Shown here in pieces: positions 21,326 to 28,343 of a DNA stretch of 64,000 nt. Within the stretch, counting starts at the first letter, position 1, and each line of letters starts with the position of its first letter. Made by a program: the position numbers and the translations under genes. This DNA comes from Tateyamaria sp. Alg231-49 (GTDB taxonomy: Bacteria; Pseudomonadota; Alphaproteobacteria; Rhodobacterales; Rhodobacteraceae), in NCBI RefSeq assembly GCF_900143535.1, contig NZ_FRFA01000006.1:1-64000 (forward strand). The letters are read 5' to 3'. Below the pieces are notes generated by a model, which made no database searches, was not told the origin of the DNA, and was given only the letters and a program-made list of their open reading frames with translations.

Positions 21326-21411
21326 GCGGGCGTGATGGAATGGTAGACATACCAGACTTAAAATCTGGAGGGCGTATGCCCGTGTGGGTTCGAGTCCCAC
21401 CGCCCGCACCA
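21326..21411 (+). tRNA. tRNA-Leu (anticodon UAA)
   Basis: The acceptor stem GCGGGCG (21326-21332) pairs with CGCCCGC (21401-21407), followed by discriminator A and an encoded CCA. The anticodon stem-loop is CCAGA-CTTAAAA-TCTGG with anticodon TAA at 21359-21361. A long variable arm (GGGCGTATGCCC) and the T arm (GTGGG-TTCGAGT-CCCAC) are present, as expected for a class II leucine tRNA. Confidence 0.97.
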
Positions 21412-22020
21412 CCAATTATTGAGGCAAAATAGTTGTTTCAGATGTTTGACTTGTAGGGGAAGTATTTTGTTCTCTCCACAAACTACATCTCAGTGGTGTG
21501 TGTGCAGCCATTGGGGTCGTTAGGCTTCAGCTTTTTATCCCAGAACTGCCCATGTAGAAGTTTGACCGCCCTTGCCGGGTTTTGGGGAAGACTGGGCCGC
21601 CGCGCGGCATCATGGGGCAAGGCTGACCTTTTGGGCGCTTAGATGCTCCGAGCCTGGATATGGCGGACGACCCGCGTCGATCTGGAAACATTTTGTTTCC
21701 GAATTCGGGAGCAGTTGAATTAGGCAAACATGTCGCATTTGGATTTCACCCACCGCTAGAAAACTGTCCACCCGAAAGGAAACAGTAGGGCCGCGAAATG
21801 GGGCGTTTAACATCTCTCCCAAGACCATTGTTCCGGTTCTCGAAACACGGCCGTCTATCAACTCGCCCTCTCAATCTCACTTTCGGCACAATGCCGCCTT
21901 TCCTTGGAAGAACCTGCCACACCGCGAACGTCATCGCTTGGTTAGTTAGGGTCAGTAACCAGTTGGTACAGTTGTCCAATTGTGGGGCGGCCATACCGTC
22001 TTAAAGTTGATGAGTGAGCG

Positions 22021-22080
22021 TCCGCTGAGGTTTTGTTTTTTGTTCTGACCTCGGCGGACAGCTTTTAGAGAATAGCTGTC
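22021..22080 (+). other. Two adjacent stem-loops upstream of micro-ORFs
   Basis: The first stem is TCCGCTGAGG (22021-22030) pairing with CCTCGGCGGA (22049-22058) with one G-U pair and a U-rich loop. The second is GACAGCT/AGCTGTC (22057-22080) with a 10-nt loop. They lie 34 nt before the start codon of a 30-codon ORF. They could be a terminator pair, a 5' leader structure or part of a small RNA. Confidence 0.4.
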
Positions 22081-22113
22081 AGGCAGAGCGTTGGAACATC
22101 GTGGAGAGAGTAA

Positions 22114-22206
22114 ATGAGTAAGACCCGCTACCCTTCACAATCCACCAAAACGGCACGGCAAAACGCCATGCTTCCTGGCCGCAAAAACGTCAAAGGGGTT
22201 TTTTGA
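22114..22206 (+). CDS. Candidate micro-ORF, basic 30-residue peptide
   Basis: A 30-codon frame (begins MSKTRYPSQSTKTARQ) preceded by GGAGAGAG with a 3-nt gap to the ATG. The peptide is strongly basic (several Lys/Arg) with almost no acidic residues. It ends 1 nt before the ATG of a second micro-ORF, suggesting a bicistronic unit. I recognise no homologue; it may be a leader peptide, a small regulator or chance. Confidence 0.35.
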   Translation: MSKTRYPSQSTKTARQNAMLPGRKNVKGVF

Positions 22207-22207
22207 C

Positions 22208-22309
22208 ATGACGCAGGTTGTGATTTTGCTCATATTGGTTTGTTATTTTGCGCAACGCGAAATGCCCTGCCGCAGATTAAAGATTCACTTTAAGGGCGGC
22301 GAACAGTAA
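22208..22309 (+). CDS. Candidate micro-ORF, 33-residue hydrophobic-basic peptide
   Basis: A 33-codon frame beginning MTQVVILLILVCYFA. The first 15 residues form a short hydrophobic helix; the rest (QREMPCRRLKIHFKGGEQ) is basic. AAGGGG lies 9 nt before the ATG. This layout of short membrane segment plus positive tail is shared by many small membrane peptides, including type I toxins, but no sequence homology is claimed. It follows the preceding micro-ORF with a one-base gap. Confidence 0.35.
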   Translation: MTQVVILLILVCYFAQREMPCRRLKIHFKGGEQ

Positions 22310-22605
22310 TCTGAACTTGGGCTCTCAACACGTCAAAGCGTGAGGTGGATGCCGTTCAGAACTCCGCCCTCACTACTTGTCTCATGGCTTTCCGGTGCTT
22401 CAACAACAATAGCTGCAGCGTACATGCGTCCAATCGTGCTGTAGAGGGTACTTGGCCAAACACCTTGGCTTGATCAGGGGCGAAGTCGCGGATTGCGTTC
22501 TCGCAAAGTGCGCGAGGATAGTGGCGAAAAGGCCGAGGCAGAAAGCGTGGACCGCACATTTCACTGAGTTCTAGCAGATAGGCCATGCGCCACCGGACCC
22601 TCTGT

Positions 22606-22651
22606 TGTGTTCAGGTTATCGGCCCGTCTGTGTTCAGGTTATCGGCCCGTC
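22606..22651. repeat. Perfect 23-bp tandem duplication
   Basis: Two identical head-to-tail copies of a 23-bp unit (22606-22628 and 22629-22651) that starts TGTGTTCAGG and ends GGCCCGTC. The copies are exact, so the duplication is recent or maintained. It lies about 235 bp upstream of the first gene of the DUF3604 cluster. Confidence 0.85.
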
Positions 22652-22886
22652 GATCTGAGTGGTATTCTTTCTTAACTTGCAGACTTCCAAGGTCTTACCG
22701 GCTGATCGTCAGTTGCTATGAACTGACAATAGGATGCGGTTGCCGGCCCATTGCTTTGACATCAGATCTGCGTGGCGATTTTGGGCGAAAGCTCATTTTT
22801 GCCTTGCGTGTGGTCGGTTCTGTCGTTTGGATTTGACGGACATATTGTGCATAGTCGTCGCAAAGGTTTGCGGTCGGCAGCTTGGG

Positions 22887-23999
22887 ATGATGGTGAAACA
22901 GTTGAAGATGATAGCAGCAGATGCGCGCCGCCCGACACCGTTGCGATGGTTTGTGACGCTGGTGACTGTGGCAGTACTGGTGGTTGTTGTGCCAGTTCAT
23001 CAGGTGCGCGCCTGCGCCTTTGATATGGTCAAGCCAGAACGCACAGCGATCGACTGGGTCGTTGAGGCGGACCACCTCTTGCTTGCAAGACCCAAGCCCG
23101 AAAATCCCTTTGCCTATGGAATGGTGGAGGTTCTTTACGGTGATACAACTGAAATTGATATTCCTCATCTGGTTGATAGGACGGCCCGACACCGGCTGTC
23201 GGCGGCACCACAGGATGCTGTTTTGTTTGCCAGATTCGACGACGGCGATTGGCGCCGAGTTGCATATGTAGATGCCGAGTTTCGCCGCGTCCTGGACATC
23301 TCTTTGGCCCATCGTGACGAATGGCAAGCCGGGTTCCACGAAAGCCGATTGCGCCTGATCGACAGCCTACAGGATATCGACCACAGGACGCTGCGGTTTC
23401 TTTTGATCAGTGAGCTCGACAAAGTTCCATATGATCATTTGCGTACCCTCGACTTACGTATACCCGCAGGGCAATTGCTGTCCGAACTCTGGCAGCCAGC
23501 GAACTATCCGTTTCAAGCCATACATGTTCTGCTGCTTGGGCTATCAGATGATGCGGCTGCACGCGCAGAGATCTATAATTTCGTTGACCGGGCCAAGGAC
23601 CAGATGTCGCCTACCAACTTGGGCGCGTTTTCCGCAGCCCTGATCGAATTGGAGGGCGCTGCGGCTGTTCAAAAGCTGTCAGAAGACATTCTTTTCGACC
23701 CAAATCAGCCGCTCGACAAAGTGGAACAGGTGGTTATGGCGCTGTCGGTTCAGCACGCGGTTACGGATGCGCAAACACAGCAAGCCATCGCAGACACCCT
23801 GTCCGATCTGGTTGAAAAAAGGCCAGAAACCGGCGCGTTGATTGCGCGGCAGTTCACGCTTAGGTCCGATTGGTCGCAAGCGATACTTCTTGAGCCGCTG
23901 ATCAGGGAACGCAAGCTGACAACGATCAAAGACTTGGCAAGCGTAACCGCTTACGTCCTGCGGGCAAAACAGACCACAGCACAAAGCGAAGACGGATAG
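22887..23999 (+). CDS. Exported or membrane-anchored protein of unknown function
   Basis: About 370 residues. Residues 21-37 (WFVTLVTVAVLVVVVPV) form a signal peptide or anchor, followed by RACAFDM, where a cysteine lies near the likely cleavage region; the context is not a standard lipobox. The mature part begins with a mixed alpha/beta segment (ADHLLLARPKPENPFAYGMVEVLYGD, split across two strands), and the second half is mainly helical. I recognise no family. It is the first gene of a same-strand run with the DUF3604, parvulin and HupE/UreJ genes, although 470 bp separate it from DUF3604. The ATGs at 22887, 22890 and 22908 are all possible starts. Confidence 0.7.
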   Translation: MMVKQLKMIAADARRPTPLRWFVTLVTVAVLVVVVPVHQVRACAFDMVKPERTAIDWVVEADHLLLARPKPENPFAYGMVEVLYGDTTEIDIPHLVDRTARHRLSAAPQDAVLFARFDDGDWRRVAYVDAEFRRVLDISLAHRDEWQAGFHESRLRLIDSLQDIDHRTLRFLLISELDKVPYDHLRTLDLRIPAGQLLSELWQPANYPFQAIHVLLLGLSDDAAARAEIYNFVDRAKDQMSPTNLGAFSAALIELEGAAAVQKLSEDILFDPNQPLDKVEQVVMALSVQHAVTDAQTQQAIADTLSDLVEKRPETGALIARQFTLRSDWSQAILLEPLIRERKLTTIKDLASVTAYVLRAKQTTAQSEDG

Positions 24000-24467
24000 C
24001 CGGGCAGCTTGCCAGGGCCCGCTTTCAGCCATAGCAGGCCGGATCAGAACTGGCTTTCACCCCGGTTTTTAGGCCCGAAAAGCTTTGGGCTGACATCTGT
24101 GTCTATGCGTTCGACACATGCCAGAGGGATGAGTGCGCACATCCCATTTGCCACGCAGTCTGAGGAATTGATTGGGTTTCCAGAAGGGGAATAAGCTCGA
24201 AAAAAGGTGGCTAATGATCGATGGAAACTCGATTTGTTTTCGACGCTAATGATCGCGGTCACTTGTCTAAATCGATTAACATGTGCACACTGCTCTCACG
24301 TCACTTGAGTTTTCAACTCAGTGAGCGGTTCTATGGTTTGGCGACCGCCCTCGAGAATAACCTTCTGTATAGGCAGTGTTTTCGACTTGTGGCCAGGCCA
24401 CGGGCGTCTTCTGCCGCTGTTCCAGTGTATGCGTCGCCCACGAATAAAGACACTTGGGGGGGAATCC
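24000..24467. other. Long leader region before the DUF3604 gene
   Basis: A 468-bp gap with no supported gene. A perfect 6-bp hairpin TGAGTT-TTC-AACTCA lies at 24306-24320. The gap probably contains the promoter of the DUF3604-parvulin-HupE genes and perhaps a structured 5' leader. I cannot point to a known riboswitch class. Confidence 0.45.
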
Positions 24468-26390
24468 ATGTCAAAATTATCTGTTGCCGCATTGAGTTTT
24501 ACTATCCTTGCAACAGGAGCGATCGCGGATGGAGTGCCGTCTGAAGAAGCTGCCGAGGGAACATTTCCGGCAAAACCTTTTTCGCCCTACGCAAACAGAA
24601 CAATACCTGAGCGGCCTCTGTGGGGAGACAGCCATTTGCACACCGGGCTTTCGCTGGACGCCGGCGCGTTTGGCAATACCCTTTTGCCAGACGAAGCATG
24701 GCGCTTTGCCAAGGGAGAGCAGGTCATTTCTTCAACAGGCCAACCAGTCAGGTTGTCCAGACCGCTTGATTGGATGGTATTGACAGATCACACCGATCTT
24801 ATGGGCTTTGCGCCTGACCTGCAGGCTGGCAAACCCTCCGTTTTGGCCGATCCCAAGGGACGGGAATGGTATGAAGGTTACTCAAAAGGTGGTGAAGCAG
24901 CTGGTAAATCTGCGTTTGACCTGATCACGAATTTTTCCCAGATGACCCTGCCTGAGTTGTTGCTGGAATCCTACAGCCCCGGAGCTGATGCGTTTGCTTT
25001 CACATGGGAACACATTGTGGACGCCGCCGAGCGGCATAACGATCCCGGTACGTTCTCGGCCTTTATTGGCTTTGAATGGACGTCGGTGCCCAAGGGGTTC
25101 AACTTGCACCGTAATGTCATGTTGCGCGATGGCGGGGTTCGAGCAAAGCAGGTGGTTCCACCTGTCACGCAACCGCCCTACGGCGATACAAACCCTCACA
25201 CGCTCTATGACTGGCTTGAAATGTACGAAGAAAAAACCGGCGGACGCGCGGTGGCTTTTTCGCATAACGGCAACCTTTCAAATGGTTGGATGTTTCCAAC
25301 CGAAGACACTTATCACGGTGGTGAGGTTGATCAGGAATATGTCGATCGCCGTGCAAAGTGGGAGCCGCACTACGAGGTCACTCAGATCAAGGGTGACGGC
25401 GAGGCACACCCTGCTCTTAGTCCGGACGATGCATTCGCCGACTATGAAAACTGGGATATCGGCAACCTTGATCTGACCGAGCTCAAAACCGAAGAAATGC
25501 TGGCGGGTGAATACGCGCGTGAAGCTCTGAAACAGGGGCTGGCTCTTGAGGCGAAGTTCGGGGTGAACCCATACAAGTTCGGCATGGGCGGCGCGACCGA
25601 TAGCCATACGTCTCTGGCGACTGCCGAGGAAGAAAATTTCTTTAGCAAATCGGTTAGCGTGGAGCCATCACCGACTCGTATCGAGCATCCCTTTATCAAA
25701 AGCGAACTGGGCGAAATTCCAGGCGATATGATAGTGGCATCAGGCTATACCGCTGTGTGGGCTACTGAAAACACACGGGCTGCGATCTTCGATGCATTTA
25801 AACGCCGCGAAACCTACGCCACCACCGGCCCACGCATGGGGCTGCGCTTCTTCGGTGGTTGGGACTACACGGATGATGATCTGCGCACGCGCATGCCTGC
25901 TCAGAACGGATACGACAAGGGTGTTCCCATGGGTGGCGATTTGCGCCCGCGCGAAGGCGATGCAGCACCAAGCTTTATGATCTATGCGCTGCGCGATCCG
26001 ATTGGAGCCAATCTGGACCGTATGCAAGTGGTCAAAGGCTGGCTCACACCTGACGGCGAACTGGATGAGAAAGTGTATGACGTGGCATGGTCCGGTGATC
26101 GGGTGGCGGACGCGAATGGCGTCGTTCCAGCCGTTGGCAACACGGTCGATCTGGAGACTGCCAGCTGGTCCAACACCATTGGCAGCGCGGAGCTCATGAC
26201 TGTTTGGACCGATCCTGATTTCGATCCCGAAGCGCGTGCGTTCTATTACGTTCGCGTCCTCGAAATTCCGACACCCCGTTGGATCGTTTATGACAAAGTC
26301 CGCTATGGGATCGACCTGCCGGAAGAGGCGCAGCTGACCCATCAGGAACGGGCTTATTCGTCTCCCATCTGGTATACTCCAGCCGAGTAA
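24468..26390 (+). CDS. DUF3604 protein, putative secreted PHP-like metallohydrolase
   Basis: A 640-residue protein with a signal peptide ([20 protein letters not shown]). The DUF3604 fold resembles the PHP/amidohydrolase superfamily. Candidate metal ligands are D54, H56 and H58 in [10 protein letters not shown]107 and H108 in LTDHTD, H266 in SHNGN, and D378 and H380 in GATDSH. A C-terminal beta-rich part includes [20 protein letters not shown]. By family analogy it should hydrolyse a phosphoester or related bond in the periplasm, but no substrate is known. GGGGGGAA precedes the ATG. A strong hairpin follows the stop before the parvulin gene. Confidence 0.9.
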
Positions 26391-26401
26391 TTTCAGACGG
26401 C

Positions 26402-26425
26402 GGTGGGCGCCTTTTGGCGCCCACC
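26402..26425 (+). terminator. Strong hairpin after the DUF3604 gene
   Basis: GGTGGGCGCC-TTTT-GGCGCCCACC is a perfect 10-bp stem with a 4-nt loop starting 12 bp after the stop. No U-run follows, so it may be a rho-assisted terminator, or an mRNA-stabilising element that lowers expression of the downstream parvulin and HupE genes relative to DUF3604. Confidence 0.6.
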
Positions 26426-26538
26426 CGTAAGGGGCAACAGACAAGTTGCGTGACATTGCCTAGGGCGTGTCGCGTCATTTGTGTCTGCAAATCCCATGTG
26501 TAATATTGAGCAAAATCAAAACAGTGGACACGGACAAC

Positions 26539-27357
26539 ATGGGCCCCATTCTACGCGAACCCCTTGTGCATTTTGTGGTGATCGGAGCTTTGCTGTTTGC
26601 AGCATTTGGCTATCTCAACCCTGAGCCCGCCGAAGTTCCCAACAAGATTGTCGTAACGACAAGCGATATCGAAGTTCTGGAACAGGCATTTCAAAGCAAT
26701 TGGCGTCGCCCGCCAAATGACGCTGAACGCGCAGCGATCATTGACGCACACGTCCGTCAGGAGGTCCTGGTCCGCGAAGCCGAGGGGCTTGGACTGGATC
26801 GAAACGACGCGATCATCCGCCAAAGACTGCAGCAGAAGATGGATTTTCTGCTGTCCTCCGGAGCAAATGCCGTCGTCCCGACAGATGAAGAGCTTGAGAC
26901 CTTTCTGAACGAAAATTCGGATCGATACCTGGTGAGTGGAAAGATGGCGTTTGAACAGGTCTATCTGGGGCAAAGGGCTACGGCGGACATTGTCACTGCA
27001 ACCTTGACCAGCCTGAATGCCGGAACAGATCGCAACACGATTGGCGAGCGGACGCTGTTGCCGGGAGAAGTGCCGCTGAGCACCGACGTTGCCATTGATG
27101 GAACGTTTGGCACCAGCTTTGCCGCAGCACTGGCGGGTCAACCAATCGGCACGTGGACCGGACCTGTTCAGTCCGGGTACGGCATACATGTCGTGCGGGT
27201 GATTGAGCAGACGCCAGCGCGTCAACCCGCTCTTGCAGAAGTTCGCGACATGTTGGAATCCGAGTGGCGCGCGGAGCGCGCCGTAGAACTCTCTGACGCA
27301 ATCTATGAAGATCTGCGAGAGCGATACACAATCGAAATCCAGATGTCCGACACATGA
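26539..27357 (+). CDS. Membrane-anchored parvulin-type peptidyl-prolyl isomerase
   Basis: About 272 residues: an N-terminal membrane anchor (EPLVHFVVIGALLFAAFGYL, about residues 8-27), then a helical SurA/PpiD-like chaperone region (about 40-130). A parvulin domain follows, ending with the family signature SGYGIHVVRVIEQTPARQ. It would face the periplasm and assist folding of exported proteins. Its stop overlaps the HupE/UreJ start by 4 bp (ATGA), so the two are translationally coupled. The start codon is not backed by a strong ribosome binding site; an upstream in-frame start would add 24 residues. Confidence 0.85.
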   Translation: MGPILREPLVHFVVIGALLFAAFGYLNPEPAEVPNKIVVTTSDIEVLEQAFQSNWRRPPNDAERAAIIDAHVRQEVLVREAEGLGLDRNDAIIRQRLQQKMDFLLSSGANAVVPTDEELETFLNENSDRYLVSGKMAFEQVYLGQRATADIVTATLTSLNAGTDRNTIGERTLLPGEVPLSTDVAIDGTFGTSFAAALAGQPIGTWTGPVQSGYGIHVVRVIEQTPARQPALAEVRDMLESEWRAERAVELSDAIYEDLRERYTIEIQMSDT

Positions 27358-28343
27358 AGCGACTCTTTGCATTAGCACTATCAGCAATGCTGTGGGGCAG
27401 CCTGGTACAGGCGCATGCCCTTCAGCCCGGGTATCTTGAACTGCGGGCCTTGGACGGCAACACGTGGAGCGTTTTCTGGCGCAAACCAGACGTGCAGGGG
27501 CAGCCGATGGCACTTGATGCCATCTTGCCCGACACTTGCGCGCAACGCCGCGGCCCTGAACCGAAGTTCGATGGAGAAGGGTGGTCGACCCGGTGGATCA
27601 CGTCCTGCTCAGGCGGACTGAGCGGGGGCATCATCTCGATCGAAGGTCTCGAAGAAACCAGCACCGACGTGTTGGTCCGTTACGAACTCGAACCCAAAAA
27701 AGGACAGGCATGGCGCCTTGTGCCTACAGCACCGTCCTTTGAAGTGCCTGTGTCGCCTGGGGCGTGGGAGGTTGTGAAAAGCTATACCTTCCTTGGGGCG
27801 GAACACATACTCTTCGGCTTTGACCACCTGTTGTTTGTGTTGGCGTTGCTGCTGTTGATACGGGACGTCCGCTTGTTGATCGGCGCGATAACCGCGTTCA
27901 CGGTGTCCCACAGTCTTACGCTTGGTGCTGCGGCGCTGGGCTGGCTGAACATACCGGGCCCTCCGGTGGAAGCGATCATCGCGCTATCCATCATGTTTGT
28001 TGCCTCCGAGATATTCCACCGCGACCCAGACAACCCGCGGCTTTCCGAGCGCGCTCCGTGGCTTGTTTCCTTCGGTTTCGGGCTTATCCACGGATTGGGG
28101 TTTGGTGGCGCGCTCAGCGAAATCGGACTGCCCCAAAGTGAGATTGTTCTGGCTTTGCTGGCCTTCAATATTGGGGTCGAGCTTGGTCAAATTGTTTTCA
28201 TATCCGTTTGCCTTGCTGCATGGGCACTTGTTCGACGGTTGATCAGAACAGACCTTAGCCTGCGTCTTGAAACCCTCGCCGTTTATGGCATTGGAGGTTG
28301 GGCAGCCTTCTGGTTCGTTGAACGGATCGCGGGTTTCGTCTAA
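27354..28343 (+). CDS. HupE/UreJ family membrane protein
   Basis: A 329-residue protein with a signal peptide (MKRLFALALSAMLWGSLVQA), a periplasmic beta-rich domain (about residues 22-135), and then a HupE/UreJ-type membrane domain of about six spans. Conserved polar residues in the first spans, GAEHILFGFDHLLFVLALLL and SHSLTL, look like a metal site (His-X3-Gly-Phe-Asp-His). HupE and UreJ proteins are associated with nickel or cobalt entry, so metal delivery is a reasonable guess. It is coupled to the parvulin gene and lies downstream of a putative metal-dependent hydrolase. Confidence 0.87.
   Translation: MKRLFALALSAMLWGSLVQAHALQPGYLELRALDGNTWSVFWRKPDVQGQPMALDAILPDTCAQRRGPEPKFDGEGWSTRWITSCSGGLSGGIISIEGLEETSTDVLVRYELEPKKGQAWRLVPTAPSFEVPVSPGAWEVVKSYTFLGAEHILFGFDHLLFVLALLLLIRDVRLLIGAITAFTVSHSLTLGAAALGWLNIPGPPVEAIIALSIMFVASEIFHRDPDNPRLSERAPWLVSFGFGLIHGLGFGGALSEIGLPQSEIVLALLAFNIGVELGQIVFISVCLAAWALVRRLIRTDLSLRLETLAVYGIGGWAAFWFVERIAGFV

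What the first reader, a model, noticed from the sequence alone, without database searches (positions are those of the whole stretch)
22887..28343. Exported four-gene cluster: unknown protein, DUF3604 metallohydrolase, membrane parvulin, HupE/UreJ-like protein
Seen: four same-strand genes, each with a signal peptide or membrane anchor. The parvulin and HupE genes overlap by 4 bp, and a strong hairpin sits between DUF3604 and the parvulin gene. Known: DUF3604 is a PHP-like fold with His/Asp metal ligands and no assigned substrate; HupE/UreJ proteins are linked to nickel or cobalt entry; parvulins fold exported proteins. Inference: a periplasmic metal-dependent hydrolase with its own folding factor and metal-supply membrane protein. 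I know of no described system with this composition.
Basis: partly seen in the sequence, partly recalled or inferred. Interest (0 to 1): 0.74.

Follow-up and report, generated by a model that had tools for sequence, protein, structure and literature searches.

The report
Accessory genes of exported metal hydrolases
A membrane foldase and a metal-transporter-like protein travel together, in several bacterial phyla, with a family of exported, probably metal-dependent hydrolases of unknown job, which suggests a dedicated kit for folding and metal-loading enzymes outside the cytoplasm.

Summary
In 398 Pseudomonadota genomes all 24 with a full-length DUF3604 also carry a distinct membrane parvulin, against 2 of the other 374; in 120 genomes of the window's family it is 13 of 13 against 2 of 107. 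A HupE_UreJ_2 gene follows the parvulin directly, usually overlapping by 4 bp. The pair is kept even where it lies far from DUF3604 (6 of 13 genomes), and one or two pairs stand against 1 to 9 DUF3604 copies, so it looks like a shared accessory module, not a neighbour's private helper. The set spans at least eight phyla. DUF3604 models as an exported PHP-type hydrolase with nine candidate metal ligands invariant. Gene 1 is an optional member; its relatives often sit in zinc-uptake clusters, and two Bacteroidota DUF3604 loci hold a ZnuA gene. Best reading: the parvulin folds, and HupE2 supplies metal (perhaps zinc) to, exported PHP hydrolases. Co-function is strongly supported; metal, direction of transport and substrate are inferred. 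I found no paper describing the set.

The parts
22887..23999 (+). Gene 1: exported 370-aa protein, no known family; predicted small beta domain plus helical solenoid; mature chain probably starts at Cys43 (inferred)
24468..26390 (+). DUF3604 (PF12228): exported PHP-type metallohydrolase by model, PHP part about 48-456, Ig-like part about 457-640
24633..24641 (+). Codons of His56-x-His58, first candidate metal-ligand motif of DUF3604, invariant in 26 of 26 aligned sequences
25599..25607 (+). Codons of Asp378-x-His380, last candidate metal-ligand motif of DUF3604, invariant in 26 of 26
26402..26425 (+). Perfect 10-bp hairpin between DUF3604 and parvulin, no T tract
26539..27357 (+). Membrane-anchored periplasmic parvulin (Rotamase_2) of the DUF3604-linked type
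27354..27357 (+). 4-bp start/stop overlap ATGA of parvulin and HupE2; the parvulin gene ends in ATGA, GTGA or TTGA in 36 of 41 named loci
27354..28343 (+). HupE_UreJ_2 membrane protein with signal peptide and N-terminal periplasmic domain (by reading)
27804..27827 (+). Codons of H151-ILFGF-D157-H158, variant of the HupE signature motif; H151, D157 and H158 invariant in 19 of 19

Best explanation
Parvulin plus HupE2 is a shared accessory module for exported PHP-type hydrolases of the DUF3604 family. DUF3604 crosses the inner membrane unfolded, through Sec by the look of its signal peptide (inferred). The membrane-anchored parvulin holds and folds it in the periplasm (inferred from family). HupE2, whose membrane segments carry a conserved set of His, Asp and Glu, handles a transition metal at that site, most simply by supplying it to the PHP centre with its nine conserved candidate ligands (inferred). 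One or two modules per genome serve all paralogues. Gene 1, and a separate family of Cys-starting exported proteins (K17) found next to the pair in some loci, are optional parts, probably linked to zinc supply. Shown: the locked co-occurrence, the gene order, the PHP fold of the predicted model, the ligand conservation and the zinc-gene neighbourhoods. Not shown: metal identity, direction of transport, physical contact, substrate.
Against: No direct metal or transport data. Neighbouring zinc genes are importers, which fits uptake as well as loading. Genomes with the pair but no intact DUF3604: G463, G278 (a broken piece lies beside the pair), G008, G083; diverged pairs (parvulin 82 and 70 bits) also occur in G356 and G442, which have no DUF3604. 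G239 has a diverged anchored DUF3604 and no such parvulin. Four of 34 traced genomes, all MAGs, have DUF3604 and no parvulin hit. G073 has both a signal-less relative and the pair, with full DUF3604. No metal riboswitch in the window or in 42 of 43 pair loci. No Zur-like palindrome in the window. HupE_UreJ_2 occurs in 86 of 398 genomes, 60 of them without the cluster-type parvulin, so its family role is wider. Foldseek alone ranked unrelated chains first, none below E 0.001.
Confidence: 0.52

Rival explanations
1. Metal or nutrient scavenging: DUF3604 releases something (for example a metal from an organic ligand) in the periplasm and HupE2 imports it; the parvulin merely folds the enzyme.
For: Linked zinc genes are uptake genes (ZnuA, ZrgA); in Ruegeria sp. 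THAF33 ExbB, ExbD and TonB genes lie just upstream of DUF3604; for HupE/UreJ proteins nickel uptake is assumed and cobalt transport was shown in Synechocystis (PMC7689651, passages).
Against: DUF3604 paralogues multiply while the pair stays at one or two and is often unlinked; DUF3604 neighbours also include sulfatases (12 of 80) and barrel-like proteins (8 of 80), suggesting varied organic substrates; no Zur-like site or metal riboswitch at the window cluster.
Confidence: 0.2
2. Pure folding or anchoring module: HupE2 is a membrane scaffold for the parvulin and carries no metal.
For: HupE2 follows the parvulin in all 41 cluster-type loci examined, usually overlapping; cluster-type parvulin in every full-length-DUF3604 genome of both samples.
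Against: H151, D157, H158, H186, E219 and H246 of HupE2 are invariant in 19 of 19 and lie in hydrophobic segments by reading, which suits metal handling; zinc-gene neighbourhoods.
Confidence: 0.14
3. The set is a catabolic cluster for one organic substrate, HupE2 moving the product and not a metal.
For: Sulfatase, SphA-like porin, DUF1254/DUF1214 and TRAP-type neighbours (the SphA and TRAP labels are by reading, not by a family search).
Against: These neighbours are each in a minority of loci (12, 5 and 4 of 80 for sulfatase, SphA-like and DUF1254), whereas the pair is in most; Pfam assigns HupE2 only to HupE families.
Confidence: 0.1
4. Hitch-hiking on mobile DNA without shared function.
For: Many copies are on Rhizobium, Sinorhizobium and roseobacter plasmids (79 and 78 records).
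Against: Unlinked pairs are retained in 6 of 13 genomes and the association spans several phyla.
Confidence: 0.02

Closest known systems
TerC-family exoenzyme metallation (MeeF/MeeY of Bacillus subtilis), PMC10550928, abstract and section list read
   Same: A membrane transporter-like protein needed to put metal into enzymes that leave the cytoplasm through Sec
   Different: HupE2 matches only HupE families in Pfam; here it is tied by gene order to a parvulin and to one hydrolase family; manganese is the TerC metal, and nothing here points to manganese
PHP superfamily phosphoesterases (BVU_3505 3e38, TM0559 2anu)
   Same: Fold of the model and, by recall, the order of metal ligands
   Different: 640 aa, exported, with an extra Ig-like domain and no PDB relative by sequence
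CehA/McbA carbamate hydrolases (NF038032; PMC8292978, passages read)
   Same: Exported or periplasmic hydrolases in which several histidines are needed for activity
   Different: DUF3604 of the window has no NF038032 match up to E 1
HupE/UreJ nickel/cobalt permeases (PMC7689651, passages read)
   Same: Membership of PF13795 and an H-x5-D-H motif like the described signature
   Different: Extra periplasmic N-terminal domain by reading; no urease, hydrogenase or cobalamin gene seen among the window neighbours I looked at (18-34 kb, by reading)
ZrgABCDE / ZnuABC zinc uptake (PMC9820375 and PMC6103462, passages read)
   Same: Gene-1 relatives and some DUF3604 genes sit with ZrgA, MacB-like permease or ZnuA
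   Different: The four window proteins include no ZrgA, ZnuA or ABC component

Membership tests
PHP superfamily (DUF3604) | PHP fold | tested here: met
PHP superfamily (DUF3604) | Nine metal ligands (HxH, D/E, H, E, H, H, DxH) | tested here: met
   All nine invariant in 26 of 26; matching them to PHP sites is by recalled order, not by measured geometry
PHP superfamily (DUF3604) | Bound metal and hydrolase activity | not testable with these tools
   Needs protein
CehA/McbA metallohydrolases | Score over NF038032 cut-off of 80 bits | tested here: not met
   Window protein: no match up to E 1; paralogue L003 16 bits
HupE/UreJ | Pfam score over cut-off | tested here: met
   PF13795 156.6 bits over 24.5
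HupE/UreJ | Signature HPxxGxDH in the first membrane helix | tested here: inconclusive
   Window has HILFGFDH: His, Gly, Asp, His kept, Pro not
HupE/UreJ | Nickel or cobalt transport | not testable with these tools
   -
Parvulin PPIase | Rotamase domain over cut-off | tested here: met
   PF13145 51.7 bits over 27
Parvulin PPIase | Isomerase activity | not testable with these tools
   -
TerC exoenzyme metallation | TerC-family transporter | tested here: not met
   HupE2 matches only HupE families in Pfam up to E 1
Zrg/Znu zinc uptake | ZrgA or ZnuA plus ABC ATPase and permease in the cluster | tested here: not met
   None among the four window proteins; present next to relatives

The most novel reading that the evidence does not exclude
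HupE2 works as an outward metal supplier: with the parvulin it forms a folding and metal-loading station on the periplasmic face that serves a whole family of exported PHP hydrolases, a Gram-negative counterpart of TerC-type exoenzyme metallation built from unrelated parts.
Probability: 0.33. Interest if true: 0.8.

Novelty: new variant of a known kind. Interest (0 to 1): 0.64.

Why it matters
How Gram-negative bacteria put metal into enzymes that fold outside the cytoplasm is, to my knowledge, largely open. A pair of genes locked to one exported hydrolase family across several phyla gives a clean handle: delete two genes and ask whether a named enzyme loses its metal or its fold. It also gives DUF3604 (no assigned function, one paper in the searched library) a fold and candidate ligands, and gives this parvulin and HupE_UreJ_2 type a candidate client.

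Full report
Observation. The four ORFs, the 4-bp overlap and the hairpin are present as described. Pfam confirms DUF3604, a Rotamase_2 parvulin and HupE_UreJ_2; gene 1 matches nothing. The DUF3604 start at 24468 follows a G-rich stretch and opens a signal-like segment; a GTG further upstream (24321) is possible. Gene 1 is separated from DUF3604 by 468 bp.

Is the grouping more than chance? I searched the same 120 genomes of the window's family with HupE_UreJ_2, DUF3604 and the window's parvulin. Thirteen genomes have a full-length DUF3604; all thirteen have a parvulin of the window's type (best copy 166 bits or more); of the other 107, two do (G008 and G083, 85 and 95 bits). In 398 Pseudomonadota genomes, 24 have a full-length DUF3604 (650 bits or more) and all 24 have the parvulin (166 bits or more; the next score is 83, a gap on which I set the threshold); two more have the parvulin alone: G278, where a broken piece of DUF3604 lies beside it, and G463. 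Fisher p is 1.2e-15 and 1.6e-36; relatedness of genomes is not corrected for, and the samples share some genomes, the window's own among them. The phylum searches scored at most 3 DUF3604 and 6 parvulin candidates per genome. Rows set aside before these counts: weak or fragmentary DUF3604 hits (phylum sample G150, G239, G247, G278, G358; family sample G009, G014, G040, G084, G088, G101, G108).

The pair. HupE_UreJ_2 lies directly downstream in all 41 cluster-type parvulin loci that were returned with flanks (15 family, 26 phylum; the window's own is in both sets), and also in two diverged ones, L209 and L210, but not in L211 and L212. Three further family copies (G007 C56, G013, G038 C6) show the same by coordinates. 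Among the 43 named loci with the pair, the called HupE2 start overlaps the parvulin stop by exactly 4 bp in 26; in others a longer start was called. In the 41 named loci with all three genes over 200 bits, the parvulin gene ends in ATGA, GTGA or TTGA in 36; distance matrices of parvulin and HupE2 correlate at 0.69 and each with DUF3604 at 0.46-0.47, no shuffle of 2000 reaching these values, which shared descent alone would also give.

Shared, not private. The pair lies within 5 kb of a DUF3604 in 22 of 24 phylum genomes but in only 7 of 13 family genomes, where one or two pairs stand against 1 to 9 DUF3604 copies (there I entered five of the six copies of the window's genome and left out split or fragmentary copies of others, which does not alter the seven). 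Retention without linkage is the strongest sign of shared function.

Breadth. A scan of species genomes gave 80 named DUF3604 loci (594 relatives found, the best 80 kept), in Alpha-, Beta- and Gammaproteobacteria, Desulfobacterota, Bacteroidota, Verrucomicrobiota, Acidobacteriota, Myxococcota, Nitrospirota, Krumholzibacteria and Campylobacterota by their record titles (phylum names from my knowledge). Parvulin and HupE2 (over 80 bits each) lie in the fetched stretch in 43 of 80, 26 of the 41 with 5 kb on both sides. Of the 37 without, 36 were traced to 34 genomes: 30 have the parvulin (86 bits or more), for L219 as the local copy whose HupE2 scored under 80; the four without are MAGs (L236, L238, L254, L270). 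HupE2 follows in 28 of the 30 parvulin loci returned, three of them weak (36-64 bits); L368 and L385, the latter near a contig end, show none. Plasmid records show the same order in Rhizobium and Sinorhizobium relatives and roseobacters (in L100 one small gene lies between).

The transporter-like protein. In 19 HupE2 sequences of seven phyla H151, D157, H158, H186, E219 and H246 are invariant and E206 and E276 are kept in 18; that they lie in membrane segments is by reading. For described HupE/UreJ proteins nickel uptake is assumed and cobalt transport was shown in Synechocystis (PMC7689651, passages).

Zinc. Relatives of gene 1 (10 of 120 genomes) sit in at least five of the ten (L143, L147, L148, L149, L150) beside zinc-type genes: ZrgA, CobW, a MacB-like permease, DUF3299 (Pfam on representatives). 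Remote relatives lie in the DUF3604 cluster itself: in G013 inside the operon-like run DUF3604-gene 1-parvulin-HupE2 (L140; 22% identity), in Mesorhizobium muleiense between HupE2 and DUF3604 (L256; 22% identity), and in plasmid pSC52_1 before a small HupE, the parvulin and HupE2, then CobW proteins and DUF1826, with only remnants of DUF3604 (L103). In Carboxylicivirga (L219) and Robertkochia (L226) a ZnuA gene (128 and 151 bits), an ABC ATPase and a MacB-like permease precede DUF3604; the third Bacteroidota locus, L282, shows none. Against zinc: no Zur-like site in the window and no metal riboswitch in what was scanned.

An informative exception. G083 has the pair but no DUF3604; the divergent neighbour is an exported (by reading) 701-aa protein with the motif series KHNH, TGHGG, IE...GHEH, PAHVE, SDWH and a weak CehA/McbA match (32 bits, cut-off 80). 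If it is a PHP hydrolase, the client class is exported PHP enzymes and not DUF3604 alone. One case only; G008 and G463 showed no client near the pair.

Judgement. That the three genes work together is close to certain. That the pair matures exported PHP hydrolases by folding and metal supply is my best reading, at about one in two; direction of transport, metal and substrate are open. Literature: DUF3604 appears in one paper of the library, as a table entry for Chlamydia (one passage seen); HupE UreJ with parvulin in none; a search by Pfam accessions and names listed three papers, two holding the HupE_UreJ name once each, which I did not open. Most subscription papers are not in that library.

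Noticed in passing
window 22606-22651: Perfect tandem duplication of a 23-mer (TGTGTTCAGGTTATCGGCCCGTC) just upstream of gene 1; its first 21 bases occur nowhere else in the window with up to 3 mismatches.
   Followed up: partly
window 21409-22730: About 1.3 kb after a tRNA gene without any ORF of 100 aa and without a plasmid match.
   Followed up: partly
L102 9754-10491, L142 8444-9220, L247 6219-7004, L278 5814-6872, L287 2204-3022: A second family of exported Cys-starting proteins (K17), next to the parvulin-HupE2 pair; two members scanned had no Pfam match.
   Followed up: partly
L221, L284, L290, L140, L123, L124: Small HupE_UreJ-type proteins follow or accompany HupE2; in L221, L290 and L140 a second small HupE-like protein follows (Pfam on the L140 pair).
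   Followed up: partly
L314 5739-9721 (G442): A diverged parvulin-HupE2 pair next to an exported MBL-fold alkyl sulfatase.
   Followed up: partly
L098 7251-9801 (Ruegeria sp. THAF33 plasmid): An ExbB-ExbD-ExbD-TonB set directly upstream of DUF3604-parvulin-HupE2.
   Followed up: no
G150 C2 46141-46476: A DUF3604 piece and a HupE2 piece side by side, both reported in a 333-aa frame, perhaps a decayed cluster.
   Followed up: partly
80 DUF3604 loci L213-L292: Sulfatase-cluster genes near DUF3604 in 12 of 80 loci and barrel-like proteins in 8 of 80 (Pfam on one sulfatase and one barrel-like member, the latter only a sub-threshold DUF481 match).
   Followed up: no
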